Assembly (NCBI GenBank): GCA_017467605.1
Contig: JAFUSQ010000042.1
Span: forward strand, 1-38,894
DNA from: a bacterium
GTDB taxonomy: Bacteria > Cyanobacteriota > Vampirovibrionia > Gastranaerophilales > Gastranaerophilaceae
DNA: 38,894 bases
Reading direction: 5' to 3'
Below, in pieces: positions 4,091-19,276 of the stretch. Under the pieces are notes generated by a model. That model ran no database searches and was not told the DNA's origin. It saw only the letters and a program-made list of their open reading frames with translations. The translations under genes were made by a program, and so were the position numbers. Positions within the stretch are counted from its first letter, which is position 1. Each line of letters begins with the position of its first letter.

Positions 4091-4200
4091 ACATGTTACT
4101 ACATCTAATTTGTAAATACATAGAGTGGTATGTTGACAAAAACATAATAAACATGTTATTGTACTACATGTTATTTTCAAAAACTAAACATGTTACTACA
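4091..4200. promoter_or_regulatory. Operator array ACATGTTA x4 between XRE and prepilin genes
   Basis: ACATGTTACTACA occurs at 4091 and 4188, and ACATGTTATT at 4151 and 4166. A -35 TTGACA (4133-4138) lies 18 bp before TATTGT (4157-4162), so two copies cover the prepilin -10 and start point. One copy lies just after the predicted start region and one lies in the XRE leader. Candidate binding sites of the divergent XRE protein. Confidence 0.65.
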
Positions 4201-4213
4201 AAAGGAGGGAAAA

Positions 4214-4930
4214 ATGAAACAGATGAAAGATTTTAAAATAGGGTTTACTCTTGCGGAGGTGCTTATAACTCTTGGAATTATAGGAGTAGTCGCAGCAATG
4301 ACTATTCCAACGCTTATGGCAAACATAAAGGGAATGAGAAATAGGGCGCAATTTAAGAAAACTCTTTCAACACTTAATCAAGCAGTAAGAATGAACAAAG
4401 CCAATTACGGCTGGGATTTTTCCACAATTGATGAAGACGATAACTATTGTGAAGCTTACAGTAATCCTGAAGTTGACAGAACATTTTGTGCAATATGGTA
4501 TGGAAATATGACCGGAGTAAGAAGTATTGAGCAATATGAGGTAATAAATGAAAGTAAAATAACTAACCCTGCAACTACATTTCATCAACTTGCAGATGGC
4601 ACGGTTGTAGCACATGATGGTTGGCTGTCCGGAACCGGAGGTAATACTTTGCCTATTGGTAAAACTTTATCAAGTATGCTTAGTAATATTTTTGAAGATG
4701 ATGATAACCGTCATTTTTCTTGGTACATAGGTTTTATAGATGTTAATGGAGAACTTGGGCCAAACAAATTTGTTGAATGTTCCGGAGATACGAAAACTGC
4801 ATTAGATCCCGAAAAACCTTGTGTTGTTAAAAATTCTGATATAACTGATATATTCCCTGTAATATTTCATGATGATGTAATTGAACCTGTAACAAACGCT
4901 GCAAAATATGTTCTGAATACTGCAAAATAG
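4214..4930 (+). CDS. Prepilin-like protein (YVLNTAK type)
   Basis: 238 residues from ATG 4214, chosen because AAAGGAGGG lies 4-5 bases upstream; the in-frame ATG at 4190 falls inside an operator repeat. Leader 'MKQMKDFKIG' then F11 'FTLAEVLITLGIIGVVAAM': the prepilin peptidase (PilD) site G/F and Glu5 are canonical. The hydrophobic N-terminal helix is followed by 'R.QFKKTLSTLNQAVRMNKANYGWDF' and a globular domain with Cys pairs, a 'FIDVNGELGPNK' loop that may bind calcium (as in GspG-type pseudopilins; inference) and the ending 'YVLNTAK'. No pilus assembly genes are nearby, so assembly genes must be elsewhere. Divergent from its XRE partner at 3751. Confidence 0.88.
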   Translation: MKQMKDFKIGFTLAEVLITLGIIGVVAAMTIPTLMANIKGMRNRAQFKKTLSTLNQAVRMNKANYGWDFSTIDEDDNYCEAYSNPEVDRTFCAIWYGNMTGVRSIEQYEVINESKITNPATTFHQLADGTVVAHDGWLSGTGGNTLPIGKTLSSMLSNIFEDDDNRHFSWYIGFIDVNGELGPNKFVECSGDTKTALDPEKPCVVKNSDITDIFPVIFHDDVIEPVTNAAKYVLNTAK

Positions 4931-10103: not shown

Positions 10104-10144
10104 ATTAATCTGTGATAAATACCGCACATAATAAAGGAGGATAT

Positions 10145-10795
10145 ATGAAAAATCCGGGATTTACATTAGCAGAAACACTAATAACAATAGGTATAATCGG
10201 AGTAGTTTCAGCTATGACAATACCGACACTCATTACTAAATATCAAAAATCTCAAGTTGAGACACGACTTAAACGATTTTATTCAATGATAAACCAAACC
10301 GTACGACTTTCTGCAGCAGAAAATGATGACGCAGACGGTTGGGTAACACTGAATGGAGAATATTCATACAACAAAAATCTGGAATGGTTAAAACAATATA
10401 TATATCCTTATATGAAACATATAAACTATAAACAGTGCTATAACGGCGGGAATTATAATGCAGTCTGTACGACCTTATTTGACGGCAGCGTAATGATATT
10501 TAAAATTGATACAAACGGAGCTTTTATAAAATTATTCTTAGATGGTAATATTGAAAATTTAAAAGAACGAAATTATTTTTTCTTTCAATTTAATTCAGCC
10601 AAAACCGTTGGAGGTAAGATATCAAATAGTATTAATTTTGTTGAACCAACAACGTTAGATTGGGACGGAACAAGTGTTGAAACTTTAAAAAATGATTCTA
10701 AATACGGTTATAGGCACAGTTCTGATAGCTGCCGCTTTTGTACTAAAATTATTCAACTGAACAATTGGAAAATCCCTGATGATTATCCTTGGTAA
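10145..10795 (+). CDS. Prepilin-like protein (C-terminal WKxPxxYPW type)
   Basis: 216 residues from ATG 10145, which has AAAGGAGG 4 bases upstream; the in-frame ATG at 10112 would be almost at the transcript start. The very short leader 'MKNPG' is followed by F6 'FTLAETLITIGIIGVVSAM', a canonical G/F prepilin peptidase site. The globular part has 'YKQCYNGGNYNAVCTTLFDGSVMIF' and ends 'CRFCTKIIQLNNWKIPDDYPW'. This ending differs from the YVLNTAK type; it resembles the ending of the protein at 33064 ('CGARLIEEGKMNY'). Type IV pilin-like or minor pseudopilin; assembly genes are not nearby. Divergent from its XRE partner. Confidence 0.86.
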   Translation: MKNPGFTLAETLITIGIIGVVSAMTIPTLITKYQKSQVETRLKRFYSMINQTVRLSAAENDDADGWVTLNGEYSYNKNLEWLKQYIYPYMKHINYKQCYNGGNYNAVCTTLFDGSVMIFKIDTNGAFIKLFLDGNIENLKERNYFFFQFNSAKTVGGKISNSINFVEPTTLDWDGTSVETLKNDSKYGYRHSSDSCRFCTKIIQLNNWKIPDDYPW

Positions 10796-10798
10796 AAA

Positions 10799-11101
10799 TT
10801 ATGTTCTTTGGTAAAATAATATTCCGTCAGTATCAATACTTTTTTTAATTCCGTCAGAGGACAATGTTTTATAATCTATAGTGTCAAATTTGTATGGGGT
10901 AGGAAGTTCATCGAGTTCATATGCAATACTATTAAAATCGCTGTGATTTTCTGTCCATATTGCAAAATCTATATCCGAGCCGTTATGGTATGTTCCTTTT
11001 GCACGAGAACCGTATATCAAAACTTTTTCGATATCTGTTTTAGTACAAAAATACTCGATTAAATCTTTTCGGGTTTTTTCAGGCAAACCAAAATTATTCA
11101 T
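10799..11101 (-). CDS. mntA: MNT-type nucleotidyltransferase antitoxin
   Basis: 100 residues, the usual size of minimal nucleotidyltransferases. The motif 'GSRAKGTYHNGSDIDFAIW' contains GSRAxG and the DxD (SDIDFA) metal-binding pair; a third acidic residue may be in 'KFDTIDY'. In HEPN/MNT (type VII) modules this enzyme AMPylates and inactivates the HEPN toxin. It is the second gene of the pair and overlaps the HEPN-like gene by 8 bases. Converges with the prepilin gene, with 3 bases between stop codons. Confidence 0.88.
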   Translation of the reverse strand: MNNFGLPEKTRKDLIEYFCTKTDIEKVLIYGSRAKGTYHNGSDIDFAIWTENHSDFNSIAYELDELPTPYKFDTIDYKTLSSDGIKKSIDTDGILFYQRT

Positions 11102-11495
11102 TAATAAATCCCTTTATTTGTTCCCTAAATTTAGATAATTCTTCATAATATTCCGAACTGATTTTTATCAAAATTTCTTGAACCTTTTCAAGCTTATATT
11201 CATGAGAAGTTGCATTTCTGGATTGCAGCATATCAATCCATATTTGTCCGTTTGGTATCACTTCAAAATGAAAAGCTTCTTTGATCACATCTTTAGGAAG
11301 ATATACCTGTACTTCCTTAGTTGCAAGATAATCTTTTAAAACCTTCCAGCCAAGTTCTATACATATTTCAAAAGATTGTAATAAAGCCATATGATTTATA
11401 ATATTTTCGCTATCTTTTCGATATTCCTCTACTACTGTAGCAAATAATTCAAATGCTTTGTTGTAATTTTCGATTCTTTCGCTTAATCTGGACAT
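11094..11495 (-). CDS. hepT: HI0074-family HEPN-like partner of the nucleotidyltransferase (putative toxin)
   Basis: 133 residues, all-helical. 'RLSERIENYNKAFELFATVVEE' and 'LLQSFEICIELGWKVLKDYLA' match the HI0074 nucleotidyltransferase substrate-binding family. 'RNATSHEY' fits the HEPN R-x4-H motif (Arg and His of the RNase centre), and the downstream Tyr is a possible AMPylation target. RNase activity is inferred from the family. GAGGT precedes the start. Co-transcribed with the downstream antitoxin by an 8-base overlap. Confidence 0.85.
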   Translation of the reverse strand: MSRLSERIENYNKAFELFATVVEEYRKDSENIINHMALLQSFEICIELGWKVLKDYLATKEVQVYLPKDVIKEAFHFEVIPNGQIWIDMLQSRNATSHEYKLEKVQEILIKISSEYYEELSKFREQIKGFINE

Positions 11496-12119: not shown

Positions 12120-12160
12120 GGGGTAAATAAAGCAAATTTAAAAGTCCGTACATTTACCCC
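12120..12160. repeat. Inverted repeat GGGGTAAAT / ATTTACCCC
   Basis: 9-bp arms at 12120-12128 and 12152-12160 in the gap between two converging genes; the right arm touches the flhA stop codon. It may form a bidirectional hairpin, but without T-runs. GGGGTAAA also recurs near 18146, 18333 and 18496. Confidence 0.45.
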
Positions 12161-14268
12161 TAATCAGTAATATATGCTTCACCAATTGTATCGATTGCTT
12201 CAACTTTTATGTCGGTAATCAATTCTGAATAAGAAATTACAACAATTGTCGGGATATGGCGTTCTAAGAGTTGATAAAGCGGAAGCCTTATTCTTGGAGA
12301 ACACAATACGACAGGCTGACGTCCGCAAGTTTGATGAGCACGAAGCAGTGTTGTTGCTGTCGTTTCAATAAGTTCTTGAACTTGAACAGGGTTAAGCAAA
12401 AACATTGTGCCAAGTTCTGTTCTTTGGCAGCTGTCATCAAGCGTTTTTTCCCATTCAGGAGACAAGGTAAGAGCGTATAAAACTTTATCATCTTGAACAT
12501 TTGAAAGACAAATCTGTCGTCCTAATGCAGCTCGCAAACGCTCTGATAATATATCCGGTTCTTTCGAAAATCTTGCATAATCGCAAAGTCTTTCAAATAC
12601 GAATATAATATCTTTAATAGAAACCTTTTCTCTGATTAAGTTAACAAAAATCTTACGCAAGTCACTTGTAGAAATAATTGTCGGTACAAGGTCATTAACA
12701 AGAGTCGGGTCTTGCGAACGTACAAGTTCCATAAGTTTAAGAACATCAGTTTTTGTCATAACTTCATCAACGTGTTTTCTTACACATTCTTGAAGATGAG
12801 TAACAATAACATCTGTTGCATCAACCGCAGTAACTAACCTTGCGGATTTTGCATCTTCTTGCGAAATCCAATAAGCCTGAGTCTGATATGTCGGGTCAAT
12901 ACCGATAATTGCATCATCAGGCACCTCTTTTTTCATAGAATCCCACTGATCGGCAATTACCATAAATTTACCCGGATAAACATAACCGGTTGCAACAGTA
13001 TTACCACGAATAGAAATCATATATTCATTAGCATCAAGAGCTGATGAATCCATAATACGAATGTTAGGTAAAATATACCCTAGTTCATCAGTTACCCTTT
13101 GACGTAAAGCCGCAATTTTTGCCAACAACTGCCCTTCTTGATCAGGATCGGCAATAACCAAAAGATTTGAACCAACCTGCAAACTTAAAATATCAACCCC
13201 TAAACGTTCGTACATTCTATTTGGGTTAACAAGGTCTTGCATATTTTGACGAACATTTTCCAACTGTCCGAGTTGTGATTGAACATCAGCATTAATAAGA
13301 ACTTGAAATCCTGCAATAAACAGAGCTACCGCAAAAATAAAGAATGGTAACGGCGGTAAACCCGTTCCTTGCCAAAACGGAGTATGACCTGTAATACCAA
13401 GCAAAATCAAAAATCCTGCAGCAAAGAAAAGAGCATATGGTTTACTTGTGATTTGAGCCGTAACATCTGCCCCCAATGATGGACTTGCGGCAGAAGCACG
13501 AGTCATAAATACACCGGCTGCAATTGACATCAAAAGTGACGGAACCTGAGATGCCAATCCGTCACCAATGGTTAATACAGTATATTTGCTAACAGCATCA
13601 CCGATTTGCATTTGATTCATTAAACAGCCGACACACAACCCCCCGATAATATTAATAAGTACAATAATAATCCCTGCAATCGTATCCCCTTTTACGAATT
13701 TCATAGCACCGTCCATTGAACCCATCAAATTTGATTCTCTGGACAAATCTTCACGTTTTTTAGTTGCTTCTTCAGGAGAAATTAAGCCGGCATTAAAATC
13801 TGCGTCAATTGTCATTTGTTTACCGGGCATTGCGTCCAATGCGAAACGTGCGGAAACTTCCGCAATACGCTCTGCACCTTTCGTGATTACCATAAACTGT
13901 ACAACGGTAATGATTAAGAAAATTACACCCCCGACAATCATATTACCGCCTGTTACGAATGTTCCAAAAGCATGAATTACTTCACCCGCTTCACCTTTTG
14001 CCAGAATCAAACGGGTAGAAGCAATTGAAAGACACAATCGGAACATAGTTCCGACCAGAATAATTGACGGAAATGATGATAATTCCAAGGTCTTTTGGAC
14101 GTATAATGCAAACATCAAAAGAACAATTCCCAAAGTTATATTAAGGCAGATACAAATATTGATTACCCAATTTGGCAATTCAACAAGTAAAATTACCAAA
14201 AGGAACAGTACAAATACTGCCATTAAAAATTCACTTATAGGATTTGCATTTCCTTCCGGTGCCGCCAT
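12160..14268 (-). CDS. flhA: Flagellar/type III export gate protein FlhA
   Basis: 702 residues, normal length. N-terminal membrane half with about 8 segments, the FHIPEP signature region at residues 141-163 ('RFALDAMPGKQMTIDADFNA'), and a C-terminal cytoplasmic domain from about residue 345 with 'LSLQVGSNLLVIADPDQEG', 'GIDPTYQTQAYWI' and 'EVMTKTDVLKLMELVR'. FlhA forms the nonameric ring that receives substrates and couples the proton gradient to export. It is the last gene of the fliE-F-G-H-flhA operon; its ATG overlaps the fliH stop by one base (TAATG). fliI, the ATPase gene, usually follows fliH but is absent here. Confidence 0.95.
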   Translation of the reverse strand: MAAPEGNANPISEFLMAVFVLFLLVILLVELPNWVINICICLNITLGIVLLMFALYVQKTLELSSFPSIILVGTMFRLCLSIASTRLILAKGEAGEVIHAFGTFVTGGNMIVGGVIFLIITVVQFMVITKGAERIAEVSARFALDAMPGKQMTIDADFNAGLISPEEATKKREDLSRESNLMGSMDGAMKFVKGDTIAGIIIVLINIIGGLCVGCLMNQMQIGDAVSKYTVLTIGDGLASQVPSLLMSIAAGVFMTRASAASPSLGADVTAQITSKPYALFFAAGFLILLGITGHTPFWQGTGLPPLPFFIFAVALFIAGFQVLINADVQSQLGQLENVRQNMQDLVNPNRMYERLGVDILSLQVGSNLLVIADPDQEGQLLAKIAALRQRVTDELGYILPNIRIMDSSALDANEYMISIRGNTVATGYVYPGKFMVIADQWDSMKKEVPDDAIIGIDPTYQTQAYWISQEDAKSARLVTAVDATDVIVTHLQECVRKHVDEVMTKTDVLKLMELVRSQDPTLVNDLVPTIISTSDLRKIFVNLIREKVSIKDIIFVFERLCDYARFSKEPDILSERLRAALGRQICLSNVQDDKVLYALTLSPEWEKTLDDSCQRTELGTMFLLNPVQVQELIETTATTLLRAHQTCGRQPVVLCSPRIRLPLYQLLERHIPTIVVISYSELITDIKVEAIDTIGEAYITD

Positions 14269-14963
14269 TAAATTTCCTTCAATACTTCACTTATTATTGC
14301 CAATTGAGATTCTATTGTTGCATCAATAACACCATTTGTTGTTGAGACAATACAACCGCCTTCCATAACACTTTCATCTGAAACTATATAAATTTTAGCT
14401 TCTAAGCCTAATGAATTCGCTACTTCCGGAACTTCTTGTTTTAACATCGAAACTTGTGCAGGATTAACCTTCAATGTTATTTTTGCTTCTTCTTTTGATA
14501 ACCCTTTCATAATATCTTTAATATTCTCAAGAATTATTTCAGGATTATCAACCATTTCTTTTTTAATAATTTTTTTTGCAATATCAAGACTTATTTCCAG
14601 TATATCGGGAGCAATACTTTCATAAACTTCTTGTTTAGCACTAAAGAATACTTCAAGCGCATTTTTAACGCTTTCAATATCGCTTCTTGCAGCCTGCAGC
14701 CCCTCCTGATAACCGTCCTTTGCAGCGGCTTCTTTTATTGCACTCGCTTCTTCTCTGGCTCTTGATATTAAATTTCTGTCATCAATTCGGCGGAAGCCTC
14801 TGCGCCTGTCACCTTTTCGGCGTTCTTGGCGTTGTTTAAAATCTATATTATCCAAATCAAACAAGTCGATATCATCTTTTTCTGACTCAACCGAATTATT
14901 ATCCTGCAGAGCTTGCTGCTCCAGTTCTCCCTCAACCGGTTTATGTTTCTTTTTTATAATCAT
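14268..14963 (-). CDS. fliH: Flagellar assembly protein FliH (ATPase regulator)
   Basis: 231 residues. A charged N-terminal region ('RQERRKGDRRRGFRR') leads to the helical 'GYQEGLQAARSDIESVKNALEVFFSAKQEVYESIAPDILEISLDIAKKIIKKEM' and the C-terminal domain 'ITLKVNPAQVSMLKQEV...VSDESVMEGGCIVSTTNGVIDATIESQL', which are standard FliH/SctL features. It normally binds the FliI ATPase and the C-ring. The next gene is flhA rather than fliI. Confidence 0.9.
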   Translation of the reverse strand: MIIKKKHKPVEGELEQQALQDNNSVESEKDDIDLFDLDNIDFKQRQERRKGDRRRGFRRIDDRNLISRAREEASAIKEAAAKDGYQEGLQAARSDIESVKNALEVFFSAKQEVYESIAPDILEISLDIAKKIIKKEMVDNPEIILENIKDIMKGLSKEEAKITLKVNPAQVSMLKQEVPEVANSLGLEAKIYIVSDESVMEGGCIVSTTNGVIDATIESQLAIISEVLKEI

Positions 14964-14975
14964 GATACAACATTA

Positions 14976-15980
14976 TTATACACTATCAGCTAAATGTGTG
15001 GCAACAATACTTGCAACTTTTGGAGGCATATTCTCGTAATATTTACCCTCTAACGCGTTAAATACAAGACGTTTAACCTCCATACGTTCTCTTATTAATA
15101 TTGTATCTATTTCTTTACGTGAATATTTCGATACGGCTTTTCTTAATCTGTATACTATTTTATTAGGAGTTAAATCTCTTGCTTTAGGTAAATTCATTTT
15201 TATTTCCTGTAAGCATCTGAGGGCATTTGCAGTACCTACTCTTTCCGCCAAATCAGGAATTCGCATATATTTGATAACGGTTTGAGCATCATCAGGATCA
15301 AATTTATTCAAAATTGATTGAACTTTATCCTGCTTCATTTTATTAAACAACATTGCAACAGTCGCAAGTTTTAATGCCTTAGAATCAACTTTAGGAAATT
15401 CTGTCGGAACATTTCCGGAAGGCAAAGGAAGTCCGTTATTGCTTTGATTAGGTGCAGAAATTTCACCGGAAGCTTGTTGTTGCTGCATCTCTTGAGCCAT
15501 CTTGTCCATATTAGATTGAGATGCGGCAAATTCCATTAACCCGTCATCTATTGCACCTTTATTACGTAACTCAGTTATTGCATCAAGATAACTCTTTTTT
15601 ACGTGATGTTCAATGAGTTCAAGAATTTTTTCATGCGGAAGCCCTTGCGTAAAGGTCTGCTTAGCAATTTCAAATATTGTATACGCAATTTTTTGCATAA
15701 CTGCGTCCCAATATTGCTGAGGAATTCCGGAACGAATTAAATCTACGGATTTATGAAACGACCATTCTGCAATAATTTGAGTAATTGTAATAGCTTGATC
15801 TGCATTAAAATTTAATGCAGGATCTTCTGCAAGTGCTTTTCCTGAAAGCATTGCAAAATTTCCTAAAGTGTTTATTACATATTGTTTTTGATTATCATTA
15901 AACTCTGGCGGAACAAGTTCTTGAGCTTGCGCTGCCAGGTTTTGGGCAAAATTTTCATAATCAAAATCTTTTGTAGCCAT
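14976..15980 (-). CDS. Protein at the fliG position; divergent FliG-like
   Basis: 334 residues, close to FliG length, lying between fliF and fliH. The N-terminal 150 residues are helical and do not look like FliG-N. A Gln-rich linker follows (residues 165-195). 'KLATVAMLFNKMKQDKVQSILNKFDPDDAQTVIKYMRIPDL' (about residues 205-245) resembles one FliG ARM-type repeat. I do not find the EHPQ motif of the middle domain or the charged torque helix of FliG-C. The FliF C-terminus ('IKSWIEEGSARE') keeps the form that binds FliG. So this is either a very divergent switch protein or a structural scaffold without motor function. The product name rests mainly on position. Confidence 0.6.
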   Translation of the reverse strand: MATKDFDYENFAQNLAAQAQELVPPEFNDNQKQYVINTLGNFAMLSGKALAEDPALNFNADQAITITQIIAEWSFHKSVDLIRSGIPQQYWDAVMQKIAYTIFEIAKQTFTQGLPHEKILELIEHHVKKSYLDAITELRNKGAIDDGLMEFAASQSNMDKMAQEMQQQQASGEISAPNQSNNGLPLPSGNVPTEFPKVDSKALKLATVAMLFNKMKQDKVQSILNKFDPDDAQTVIKYMRIPDLAERVGTANALRCLQEIKMNLPKARDLTPNKIVYRLRKAVSKYSRKEIDTILIRERMEVKRLVFNALEGKYYENMPPKVASIVATHLADSV

Positions 15981-15983
15981 TTT

Positions 15984-17678
15984 CTATTCCCTTGCTGAAC
16001 CTTCTTCTATCCAACTTTTTATCTTGTCGGCAGAATCTTCGGTTATTTCACCTGAAATACTGTCTAATGAATCAACAAGCAGATTTTCATCAAATTGCGG
16101 TATTGCATTTCTGGTTTGCTGATTTAATAAATCTTGTGCCAATTCTGATTGTCTTTGAGTTAATTGGCTTGCACGAGAATTAATATCATTTAATTGACGT
16201 TCTTGTTCAAGTGCTCTTTGTCTTAAGTTTTCAACTTCAATTTCGTTTTCTTCTTTAATTCGTCTAACTTTTGATGATATAGCCCTAAATATAATAATCA
16301 ATCCTAAACCGGATAAAAGCAAAGCCAACCACCAAGGATTTCCTGATTCGTCAACTTTTGGCAAGTTTTGCTGTTTTTCAGGTGTTAAATACGGATCGTT
16401 TGAATTTGTAAAGGCAATAGATACATTTGCAGCAGTAACTTTTGGACTTGCAGCCCTTGCAATAAGTTCTTTTAATTCTTCCAATGTGGTATCTGTCGGA
16501 AGATTATTTTTGTCAATAGTTACCGCAATTGAAATTTCTTCAACAACGCCGGGTTTAATATATTCATTGGTTTGAGTTTTAGTTACACCGTATTGAGTTT
16601 CTGTTGCTTGGCGAGAATAGTTTCTGTTTTGACTTGAATCTGTCCCGCTTGTCGGCAAACCGTTTGGAAGGTAGGTGCTTACCGCATTTATACCCTGAGA
16701 TGAATCTTTGGTTTGATCACCTAAACCTTCTCTAAATGATTGTTCAGACACAGATGCCTTTTTGGTAGGGTCATATTCAATTGAAAATCTTTCAATCGGA
16801 GCTTGTCTTAAAAATGTACTAACAGTTGCAACGTAATTTCCCGGCCCGACAAGTCTGTCAAGTTGTTTTGAAATTTTTTGCTGCATATATCTGTCATTTT
16901 CTTCAAGTTTTTGAAGCATTTCGTCTTCAGCGTCCATAATACTGTGATAAACATTACCATTAGTGTCGCTAATCGAAATATTTTCAGCCTTTAAACCGGA
17001 AACACTGCCTAATAACAAGTTTGTTATAGCTTTAACTTTTGTTTGATCTAACTTTGTCACCCCGTTATTTTCTTTTGACGGAGGTGGCAAAACAATTTGA
17101 ACAGTAGCAGTTTTTGGCTTTTCTTGATCAAAATAACTGCTATTATCAGGAATAGAAATAAATACCGTTGCATTTTGAATCGGCGGAATTTGTTTAATAA
17201 GCCTTGCCAATTCACCATTCATAGCCCTTGCAAGACGGATTCTTTTATCTTCCTTTGTAGATGTAAAATCACCTTTATCAAAGATTTCCAAACCTACATT
17301 TTGATCGACTAAACCGCTTTGAACAATTGCAATAATAGCGTTATCTCTATCTGTTATGGTACATTTTTTAGATAAAGTCGAACAATTATTTTTATTTAAT
17401 ACCAATTTAGATTTGGTACCGTCAAGCTGACGTTCCGCGGTAATACCCTGCCTTGCAAGTAAGGCTTGAATTTCTAAGGCTTTACCGACATTATCCGTAG
17501 TTAATAGGTCAACGTTTGAATTAAGAGGTTCTGCTCCAACTACAGGTTTGCTATTGTCACCCTTATTCCCGTTTGAAGCAATTACCGCCCCTAAAATAAC
17601 CAACACAAGTATCAGAACAACCCCTCCGATTATTCCGTACAGTAAAGGTTTATTTTCTAAAATTTTACTAAAATCCAT
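15984..17678 (-). CDS. fliF: Flagellar MS-ring protein FliF
   Basis: 564 residues. TM1 at about residues 11-32 ('LLYGIIGGVVLILVLVILGA'), then ring-building motifs 'GLEIFDKGDFTSTKEDKRIRLARAMNGELARLI' and 'NATVFISIPDNSSYF', 'VKAITNLLLGSVSGLKAENISI', the outer loop with a Ser/Gln-rich insert, 'YIKPGVVEEISIAVTID', TM2 ('WWLALLLSGLGLIIIF', about residue 448) and a coiled-coil cytoplasmic tail ending 'IKSWIEEGSARE'. FliF forms the base ring in the inner membrane. It is followed after 3 bases by the FliG-position gene. Confidence 0.93.
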   Translation of the reverse strand: MDFSKILENKPLLYGIIGGVVLILVLVILGAVIASNGNKGDNSKPVVGAEPLNSNVDLLTTDNVGKALEIQALLARQGITAERQLDGTKSKLVLNKNNCSTLSKKCTITDRDNAIIAIVQSGLVDQNVGLEIFDKGDFTSTKEDKRIRLARAMNGELARLIKQIPPIQNATVFISIPDNSSYFDQEKPKTATVQIVLPPPSKENNGVTKLDQTKVKAITNLLLGSVSGLKAENISISDTNGNVYHSIMDAEDEMLQKLEENDRYMQQKISKQLDRLVGPGNYVATVSTFLRQAPIERFSIEYDPTKKASVSEQSFREGLGDQTKDSSQGINAVSTYLPNGLPTSGTDSSQNRNYSRQATETQYGVTKTQTNEYIKPGVVEEISIAVTIDKNNLPTDTTLEELKELIARAASPKVTAANVSIAFTNSNDPYLTPEKQQNLPKVDESGNPWWLALLLSGLGLIIIFRAISSKVRRIKEENEIEVENLRQRALEQERQLNDINSRASQLTQRQSELAQDLLNQQTRNAIPQFDENLLVDSLDSISGEITEDSADKIKSWIEEGSARE

Positions 17679-17724: not shown

Positions 17725-18063
17725 TTATACAGAAATTTGAGAAATTCTGTCATAAGCGTTAATAACTTTACCGACAATTTGAGTTGCAACGCTGATACTG
17801 ATTTCAGATTTTGACATAGCTGTCATTACATCATGGATATCAACATTTTGGTTGCCTGACATAACGTCTTTTAACAAATTATCGGGAGCATTCATTTCTG
17901 TATTCAAATCCTCCATCAATCCGGAAAATACCTGTTTAAAATTAGGACTTTCGGTAGATTCAACCCTGTTCATTCTGGCACTTGGCATATTGCCAAATCC
18001 TGTGTCAAATTTGGTGTGCTGAATTCTGGAAGCTAAATCATATTGTGGAAAATTGCTATACAT
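17725..18063 (-). CDS. fliE: Flagellar hook-basal body protein FliE
   Basis: 112 residues. The C-terminal half 'NVDIHDVMTAMSKSEISISVATQIVGKVINAYDRISQISV' matches the FliE signature (D.H.VM.A..KA..S...A.QV..K...AY..I....V). FliE joins the MS ring/export gate to the rod. First gene of the operon; AGAGAGGT precedes the start. Confidence 0.92.
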   Translation of the reverse strand: MYSNFPQYDLASRIQHTKFDTGFGNMPSARMNRVESTESPNFKQVFSGLMEDLNTEMNAPDNLLKDVMSGNQNVDIHDVMTAMSKSEISISVATQIVGKVINAYDRISQISV

Positions 18064-18257: not shown

Positions 18258-18289
18258 TATTAATGTTAAACAACAGAAAGGAATTTAAT

Positions 18290-19276
18290 ATGCAACATGA
18301 GGTATTAGAAAGAAAATGTAAAATTGAAAATGGGGGTAAAATTAACTGTTACCCCAGGGATAAATATAATTGTCATTCTGAACTTGTTTCAGAATCTATT
18401 AAAAAACAGACCCTGAATCAAGTTCAGGGTGACATCTGTGATGTCAGTTCAAATGACAAAATTTTGGGTTCGCTTTGTAAAGTTCAGGGTGACAGGGGTA
18501 AATGCAATTCCCTCGCACCTTGTGGGAGAGGGAAGAAAGCAGCCTTCACACTTGCGGAAGTACTAATTACACTCGGTGTGATTGGTGTTGTGGCGGCAAT
18601 GACAATACCTACACTTATGGCAAATATCAGAGGTCAGCAATACCGAAGCCAATTTAAAAAGACTCTCTCAACTCTAAACCAAGCAGTACGCATGAATAAA
18701 GCTCAATATGGTTGGGAATTTTCAGATATAAACGTCAATATGTGTAATGAAGCACAAGACGATAATCCTGAAACAACGCATTCTATTTGTGCAATTATCA
18801 ATGGTAATCTAAAAGGGCATACCGCATTAAATTATACTATTTGCTCAGAAGATAGTGATTCATGTGATTACATTATTCCTATGCCGTCAGATGGCTTTGC
18901 AAGCTCAAATACCCCATATTCTGATTTATTTTCAAGACCCGGAATTGGTATCCAGTTTGCTCTTGCTGATGGCTCTATTGTCGTGTTTATAGGCCCTGAA
19001 TTGGCAAATAATTGCTACAAACCAAGTAGTTGGGAAGAAAGTAAAGGTGCTATATATTATGGTTGTGTAGGATTTATTGATGTTAACGGCATTTCGGGAC
19101 CAAATAAAGAAGTAGAATGTTCACAAGGCTCAATAGAGAACATTGGTACAAGTTCATATAAAGATTGTGTTGTTAGTACAAAATCTATGGGCGATATTTT
19201 CCCTATTGTTTTCTATGATTCAGTAGTAGAACCATTGACAAACGCTTCAAAGTATGTGCTTAATACGGCAAAATAA
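18290..19276 (+). CDS. Prepilin-like protein (YVLNTAK type) with repeat-derived 85-residue leader
   Basis: 328 residues from ATG 18290 (GAAAGGA upstream; an ATG at 18263 would be at the transcript start). Normal prepilin leaders have 5-15 residues; here 85 residues precede 'AFTLAEVLITLGVIGVVAAM'. The leader is encoded by intergenic repeat DNA: 18371-18434 is a copy of the GTCATTCTGAAC repeat, read as 'CHSELVSES' and 'LNQVQGD', and 18509-18535 resembles the CCCTC...GAGAGGG hairpin. The -1 residue is Ala rather than Gly. The body has 'QFKKTLSTLNQAVRMNKAQYGWEF', 'GFIDVNGISGPNKEVEC' and ends 'YVLNTAK'. Export and cleavage may still work, or translation may begin at an internal TTG. Confidence 0.82.
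   Translation: MQHEVLERKCKIENGGKINCYPRDKYNCHSELVSESIKKQTLNQVQGDICDVSSNDKILGSLCKVQGDRGKCNSLAPCGRGKKAAFTLAEVLITLGVIGVVAAMTIPTLMANIRGQQYRSQFKKTLSTLNQAVRMNKAQYGWEFSDINVNMCNEAQDDNPETTHSICAIINGNLKGHTALNYTICSEDSDSCDYIIPMPSDGFASSNTPYSDLFSRPGIGIQFALADGSIVVFIGPELANNCYKPSSWEESKGAIYYGCVGFIDVNGISGPNKEVECSQGSIENIGTSSYKDCVVSTKSMGDIFPIVFYDSVVEPLTNASKYVLNTAK
18371..18434 (+). repeat. Dispersed repeat copy inside the prepilin reading frame
   Basis: TGTCATTCTGAACTTG...CAGAATCTATT followed by the CCCTGAA/TTCAGGG hairpin and GTGACA. The same order occurs at 32578-32710, and the first half at 5047. Its length and phase keep the frame open. Confidence 0.75.

What the first reader, a model, noticed from the sequence alone, without database searches (positions are those of the whole stretch)
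14976..15980. FliG-position protein lacks recognisable switch/torque motifs
The gene lies exactly where fliG is expected and is the right length, and FliF keeps a FliG-binding type tail. Yet I see no EHPQ motif and no charged torque helix, and only one ARM-like stretch. If confirmed, the export apparatus may be uncoupled from rotation, i.e. a flagellum-derived secretion machine or non-rotating appendage in this lineage.
Basis: partly seen in the sequence, partly recalled or inferred. Interest (0 to 1): 0.68.

Follow-up and report, generated by a model that had tools for sequence, protein, structure and literature searches.

The report
Motorless flagellar export machine, FliG-like adaptor
In a large group of gut bacteria related to cyanobacteria, a set of flagellum-type genes encodes a separate protein-export machine in which the motor part FliG is replaced by a different adaptor protein, so it most likely secretes proteins rather than rotates.

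Summary
ORF 14976-15980(-) sits between fliF and fliH but has no FliG_C torque domain and no EHPQ motif. It is a two-part protein. Residues 1-172 form a new helical domain. Residues 200-334 resemble FliG_N, the FliF-binding domain, by fold, weak profile matches and co-folding with the FliF tail in a joint model.

The genome (96.5% complete) has no FliG_C, no MotA (only a TonB-type ExbB), no flagellin, and one double-SpoA protein instead of FliM and FliN. It retains the export gate, ATPase, MS ring, FliE and FlgB/C/G-type rod proteins. Gastranaerophilales families that still carry a canonical flagellum encode this system as well, at a separate locus with its own FliF and FlhA. The window's genus lost the flagellum and kept the second system under purifying selection (dN/dS about 0.1). 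Gene order was the same in 80 of 80 loci.

I conclude that this is an order-wide, motorless, rod-bearing flagellar-type secretion system, so far counted in the literature as complete or incomplete flagella. Export activity, substrates and the partner of the new domain are inferred. Whether it arose by old duplication of the flagellum or as a separate branch is unresolved.

The parts
14976..15980 (-). FliG-position adaptor, 334 aa
   Evidence: model
15465..15980 (-). residues 1-172: new all-helical N-domain with invariant EWxxHKxxD core; also found in a membrane-anchored paralogue and in one FlhA_C fusion
15384..15464 (-). residues 173-199: disordered, fast-evolving linker
   Evidence: pLDDT under 50 at 173-198; high dN
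14979..15383 (-). residues 200-334: FliG_N-like, FliF-binding type domain (ARM fold at about 200-287)
15984..17678 (-). FliF, MS ring (YscJ_FliF plus the flagellar YscJ_FliF_C domain)
15987..16094 (-). FliF C-terminal tail, FliG_N-binding type helix (DSADKIKSWIEE)
17725..18063 (-). FliE, proximal rod/gate adaptor
   Evidence: Pfam FliE 2e-16
14268..14963 (-). FliH, ATPase stator
   Evidence: Pfam FliH 3e-25
12160..14268 (-). FlhA, export gate (second-system branch)
   Evidence: Pfam FHIPEP 2e-215; tree

Best explanation
The ORF is the MS-ring adaptor of a motorless flagellar-type type III secretion system that is conserved across Gastranaerophilales. Its C-terminal FliG_N-like domain co-folds with the FliF tail and so coats the cytoplasmic face of the MS ring. 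Its new N-terminal domain takes the place of FliG_M/FliG_C and, instead of meeting MotA, most likely holds the double-SpoA (SctQ-like) protein and through it the FliH-FliI ATPase under the FlhA/FlhB/FliPQR gate. Substrates pass through a FliE-FlgB-FlgC-FlgG-type rod across the envelope. Shown by sequence: gene content, absence of motor and filament genes, conservation, purifying selection, coexistence with a separate flagellum in sister families. Predicted by model: FliF-tail docking. Inferred: N-domain/SpoA contact, active export, absence of rotation, nature of the substrates.
For: No FliG_C in any of the 36 genomes of the genus, the window's own included, against 20 of the 23 others. Flagellin over cut-off in 1 of 36 genus genomes, that one 6% contaminated. 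MotA-family hit is ExbB only. Only one SpoA protein, with two SpoA domains, upstream of fliO-P-Q-R. flhB, fliI, flgC-flgB-flgG-flgG and fliJ-fliK-flgE/G-like genes present elsewhere in the genome. Sister families carry the operon at a separate locus from the canonical one, their second FlhA being only 38-40% identical to the window's. FliG-type fold at 197-287: the listed structural rows confined to that stretch are all FliG entries. Joint FliF-tail model matches FliG_M, Z 8.2, rmsd 2.7, 84 residues, as expected since FliG_N plus FliF tail is known to resemble FliG_M (PMC6079021). Profile-profile with FliG_N over its full length p=0.0012, none for the N-domain. dN/dS 0.07-0.12. Gene order 80 of 80.
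Against: Structural Z-scores are middling for helical domains, sequence scores for FliG_N are below curated cut-offs, and the joint model is a read-through fusion with a shallow alignment (pTM 0.46). No partner of the N-domain and no substrate was identified. FlgH, FlgI, FlgD, FliD, MotB and secretins were not searched in this genome. The non-rotating conclusion rests on absences in draft genomes.
Confidence: 0.74

Rival explanations
1. Decaying remnant of the ordinary flagellum after loss of motility, as Soo et al. 2014 and Di Rienzi et al. 2013 read such incomplete sets.
For: The genus lacks the canonical flagellum while relatives have it; Di Rienzi reports missing filament, cap, junction and L/P rings in a single-scaffold genome and reads it as reduction.
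Against: Sister families hold the canonical flagellum and this system side by side as separate genes; dN/dS 0.07-0.12; a match in about 98% of sampled genomes of the family; the FliG-like architecture is the same in flagellated families, so it predates the loss.
Confidence: 0.07
2. A rotating flagellar-type structure with a very divergent FliG and an unconventional stator.
For: MS ring, rod proteins and a FliG_N-like domain are kept.
Against: No FliG_C, MotA, FliM/FliN pair or flagellin; Flg_bb_rod hits are four, all in this system, so no canonical hook or junction protein is evident.
Confidence: 0.06
3. A divergent non-flagellar injectisome (NF-T3SS), with the ORF as a SctK-type protein.
For: Double-SpoA, SctQ-like protein; in the unrooted FlhA tree the second-system branch is not nested among flagellar FlhAs (90/86).
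Against: FlhA scores higher as FlhA than as SctV (696 v 584 bits); FliF carries the flagellar C-terminal domain; FliE and FlgB/C/G-type rods are present, which injectisomes lack in that form; the ORF's C-domain matches FliG_N.
Confidence: 0.06
4. A rod-only envelope structure that exports little beyond its own parts, for example a scaffold or a cell-wall-associated organelle.
For: No filament or hook found; a muramidase lies in the operon of other families.
Against: Complete gate, ATPase and FliK/FlhB-type genes are kept; this is more than a static structure would seem to need, but they would also be needed to build the rod, so it is not excluded.
Confidence: 0.07

Closest known systems
Canonical bacterial flagellum (FliF-FliG-FliM-FliN, MotAB)
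   Same: FliE, FliF, FliH, FliI, FlhA, FlhB, FliO-R, FlgB, FlgC and FlgG-type rods; FliF tail with a FliG_N-like partner
   Different: no FliG_C motor domain, MotA, FliM plus FliN pair, flagellin, canonical hook or junction protein found; new domain on the adaptor
Buchnera aphidicola flagellar basal bodies (PMC8109811)
   Same: non-motile, kept basal body and export gate without fliC, motA, motB
   Different: Buchnera's are remnants of its flagellum and include ordinary FliG and FliM; here a separate system coexists with a flagellum and has a different adaptor
Myxococcales 'Myxo' NF-T3SS (Abby and Rocha 2012, PMC3459982)
   Same: motorless export system lacking FliG and MotAB, conserved in a whole clade, once taken for a relic
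   Different: Myxo systems lack FliE and FlgB/C rods; here they are present, with flagellar-type FliF
Injectisome sorting platform (SctD-SctK-SctQ-SctL-SctN)
   Same: works alike as proposed here: adaptor between membrane ring and a double-SpoA protein, no torque
   Different: adaptor built on FliG_N rather than SctK; membrane ring is FliF

Membership tests
FliG | FliG_N domain binding the FliF tail | tested here: inconclusive
   fold and profile support at residues 200-287, below curated cut-offs; docking only predicted
FliG | FliG_M domain with EHPQ(R) motif | tested here: not met
   no EHPQ in 34 homologues; an invariant E298-R299, ERP in four homologues, is the nearest thing
FliG | FliG_C torque domain with charged helix | tested here: not met
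   no match in protein or genome, controls positive
Bacterial flagellum (rotary) | MotA stator | tested here: not met
   only ExbB in a TonB cluster
Bacterial flagellum (rotary) | FliM and FliN | tested here: not met
   one double-SpoA protein only
Bacterial flagellum (rotary) | flagellin filament | tested here: not met
Bacterial flagellum (rotary) | L and P rings (FlgH, FlgI) | not tested
   Di Rienzi et al. report them missing in MEL.A1
Flagellar-type T3SS export apparatus | FlhA, FlhB, FliP, FliQ, FliR, FliI, FliH | tested here: met
   FlhA, FliH, FlhB, FliI; FliP, FliQ, FliR by position after the SpoA and FliO genes and by similarity to the same genes in L089
Flagellar-type T3SS export apparatus | FliF with YscJ_FliF_C, FliE, FlgB/C rods | tested here: met
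NF-T3SS injectisome | SctF needle, SctD, secretin | not tested
   no genome searches left; none seen in the operons read
NF-T3SS injectisome | SctQ-like protein with two SpoA domains | tested here: met
   402-aa protein, two FliMN_C stretches

The most novel reading that the evidence does not exclude
A third lineage of type III secretion machine, neither flagellum nor injectisome, derived independently from a flagellum in the Vampirovibrionia, in which FliG was rebuilt into a torque-free, SctK-like adaptor by joining its FliF-binding domain to a new module that is also used in membrane-anchored and FlhA-linked proteins.
Probability: 0.4. Interest if true: 0.86.

Novelty: new variant of a known kind. 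Interest (0 to 1): 0.72.

Why it matters
How a rotary flagellum becomes a secretion device is known essentially from one exaptation, that of the NF-T3SS. This order offers what looks like a second case, with flagellum and derived machine still side by side in several families and only the machine left in the window's genus. It would also change the reading of 'flagellated' or 'non-functional flagellum' in gut Melainabacteria. From gene order and numbering I infer that eight or so of the 13 genes used by Di Rienzi et al. for their flagellar phylogeny belong to this second system.

Tried and rejected
Direct profile-profile comparison of whole proteins (A1 v A2) gave nothing useful; only the C-domain alone against FliG_N gave a signal. 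Foldseek against the PDB had no hit under E 0.001; PDB sequence search with the family profile had none of note. Pfam P16-Arc and NCBIfam aceE hits are judged chance. No plasmid encodes a relative. The AU test did not settle whether the second-system FlhA is sister to the order's own flagellar FlhA (p 0.115). SctK did not appear among the structural rows, which says nothing either way. An alternative assignment of the C-domain to FliG_M was weighed: FliG_M and FliG_N share the fold, but the full-length profile match and the FliF tail favour FliG_N.

Full report
What is at the locus. The 334-aa ORF at 14976-15980(-) lies between fliF and fliH in the run fliE-fliF-ORF-fliH-flhA. Pfam and NCBIfam name its neighbours but not it. 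The window belongs to a draft genome of 2.19 Mb, 96.5% complete. Named relatives show that it is Candidatus Gastranaerophilales (Melainabacteria).

Is it FliG? No FliG_C exists in the genome, although the same search finds it in four control genomes. No homologue has EHPQ. An AlphaFold2 model from 34 homologues (pLDDT 82, pTM 0.49) gives two domains: helices 8-172, a disordered stretch 173-198, helices 200-333. Structural realignment puts FliG entries, and nothing else in the list, on the stretch about 197-287 alone: 8wo5 Z 6.7 (rmsd 2.9, 62 residues), 8umd Z 6.4, 5wuj (FliF-FliG complex) Z 6.2 (73 residues), 5tdy (FliF tail with FliG_N) Z 5.5 (86 residues). These Z values are modest for a helical domain, so independent support matters. 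Eight of 34 members have weak FliG_N Pfam hits; the best spans nearly the whole profile (positions 6-93 of 104, E 0.0015). HHalign of this domain with the order's own FliG_N aligns 93 columns (p 0.0012), while FliG_M gives 0.029, FliG_C 0.4 and the N-domain nothing.

FliF docking. All 14 second-system FliF proteins examined keep a C-terminal tail with a conserved LKxWIE-type helix where canonical FliF of the order has DPxEAARLLLxYIKE. In the window fliF and the ORF are in the same frame, one codon apart, so a read-through of the fliF stop gives a tail-ORF chain that can be modelled. In that model the tail forms two helices at pLDDT about 80, and an alignment running from the tail to the FliG_N-like domain matches Salmonella FliG 104-188, i.e. 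FliG_M (8wo5 Z 8.2, rmsd 2.7, 84 residues, 16% identity). This is what co-folding predicts, because the complex of FliG_N with the FliF tail is known to resemble FliG_M (PMC6079021). It is a prediction with low pTM (0.46), not a measured contact.

What the genome has and lacks. Present: a double-SpoA protein followed by fliO-P-Q-R (C76), flhB (C57), fliI (C22), flgC-flgB and two FlgG-type genes (C55), and fliJ, fliK-like and a further FlgE/F/G-type gene (C69). Absent: FliG_C, separate FliM and FliN, flagellin; the MotA-family hit is ExbB within a TonB-ExbB-ExbD cluster. Flg_bb_rod has four matches, all in this system, against six to nine in most flagellated relatives, so hook and junction proteins are not evident. 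FlgH, FlgI, FliD, MotB and secretins were not searched here.

A second system, not a leftover. Across 59 relatives, 20 of 23 genomes outside the genus have FliG_C and 21 of 23 flagellin; none of the 36 in the genus has FliG_C. In those flagellated families the ORF's homologue lies in its own operon, on a different contig or far from canonical fliG; where read in full it comes with fliI, flhA, fliH, fliF, fliE, a muramidase, flgC, flgB and FlgG-type genes. Most such genomes have two full-length FlhAs, one 66-77% and one 38-40% identical to the window's. Class-wide, 291 of 336 good genomes match the family profile, nearly all of the window's family, with weak matches in a few families of other orders. 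In 80 named loci the gene order is the same as far as contigs extend. dN/dS of the ORF within the genus is 0.07-0.12; dN is low in the N-domain and high in the linker; dS is above 1, so these are approximate. This does not look like decay.

Origin. An FlhA tree of 30 rows makes the second-system proteins one clade (100/100) apart from SctV; they branch outside the flagellar rows with moderate support (90/86), on a long branch. Grouping them with the order's canonical FlhA is not rejected (AU p 0.115). Duplication of the flagellum within the class and a deeper separate origin both stay open.

Mechanism. The best reading is that the C-domain binds the FliF tail and the new N-domain replaces the torque and switch domains, linking the ring to the double-SpoA protein and the ATPase complex, much as SctK links SctD to SctQ. 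The N-domain is a reusable module: it occurs in a 221-aa paralogue with a C-terminal membrane anchor in nearly every genus member, in a 187-aa copy beside the ORF in one family, and in a fusion to the FlhA cytoplasmic domain. The N-domain-SpoA contact and export itself are inference.

Prior knowledge. Di Rienzi et al. 2013 called Melainabacteria flagellated and read the missing filament, cap, junction and L/P rings of MEL.A1 as reduction. Soo et al. 2014 read incomplete sets as loss of a functional flagellum. Their accounts do not, in the passages read, separate two systems. The gene list in Di Rienzi (flgG, flgG, flgC, fliF, fliH, flhA, fliI, flgE on one contig, numbered 15 to 28) fits this operon gene by gene, including the gap at the ORF's place; that is my inference. 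The Myxo systems of Abby and Rocha and the Buchnera basal bodies are the closest described cases and differ as listed. Literature searches found no description of this system, within an open-access library only.

Noticed in passing
L253:8353-9834 (G000:C53:14353-15834): Nearly every searched genome of the order, flagellated or not, carries a soluble ~493-aa protein with only the FlhA cytoplasmic domain (about 27% identity to the window's FlhA) behind a short N-terminal domain; in flagellated G041 it precedes fliJ-fliK-flgD-flgE-like genes.
   Followed up: partly
L037:6818-7483 (G000:C52): 221-aa paralogue of the ORF's N-domain with a C-terminal membrane hairpin, conserved in the genus.
   Followed up: partly
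L108:7164-9023 (G005:C113): 619-aa protein joining the ORF's N-domain, a transmembrane stretch and an FlhA cytoplasmic domain.
   Followed up: partly
L103, L104 (G035): One 99% complete genus member lacks the full-length ORF and the membrane FlhA but keeps the rod genes: possible recent loss of the machine or a missing contig.
   Followed up: no
10799-11495(-): Adjacent Polbeta-type nucleotidyltransferase and NTase substrate-binding (HEPN-like) pair, resembling an MNT/HEPN toxin-antitoxin module, just beside the operon.
   Followed up: no
L158, L123, L182, L184: Public records titled Fusobacterium sp. CAG:439, Muribaculaceae, Ruminococcus sp. and Heliobacteriaceae carry this operon and look misnamed.
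   Followed up: no
4190-4930, 10112-10795, 18263-19276: Several pseudopilin-like proteins with N-methylation motifs in one window.
   Followed up: no
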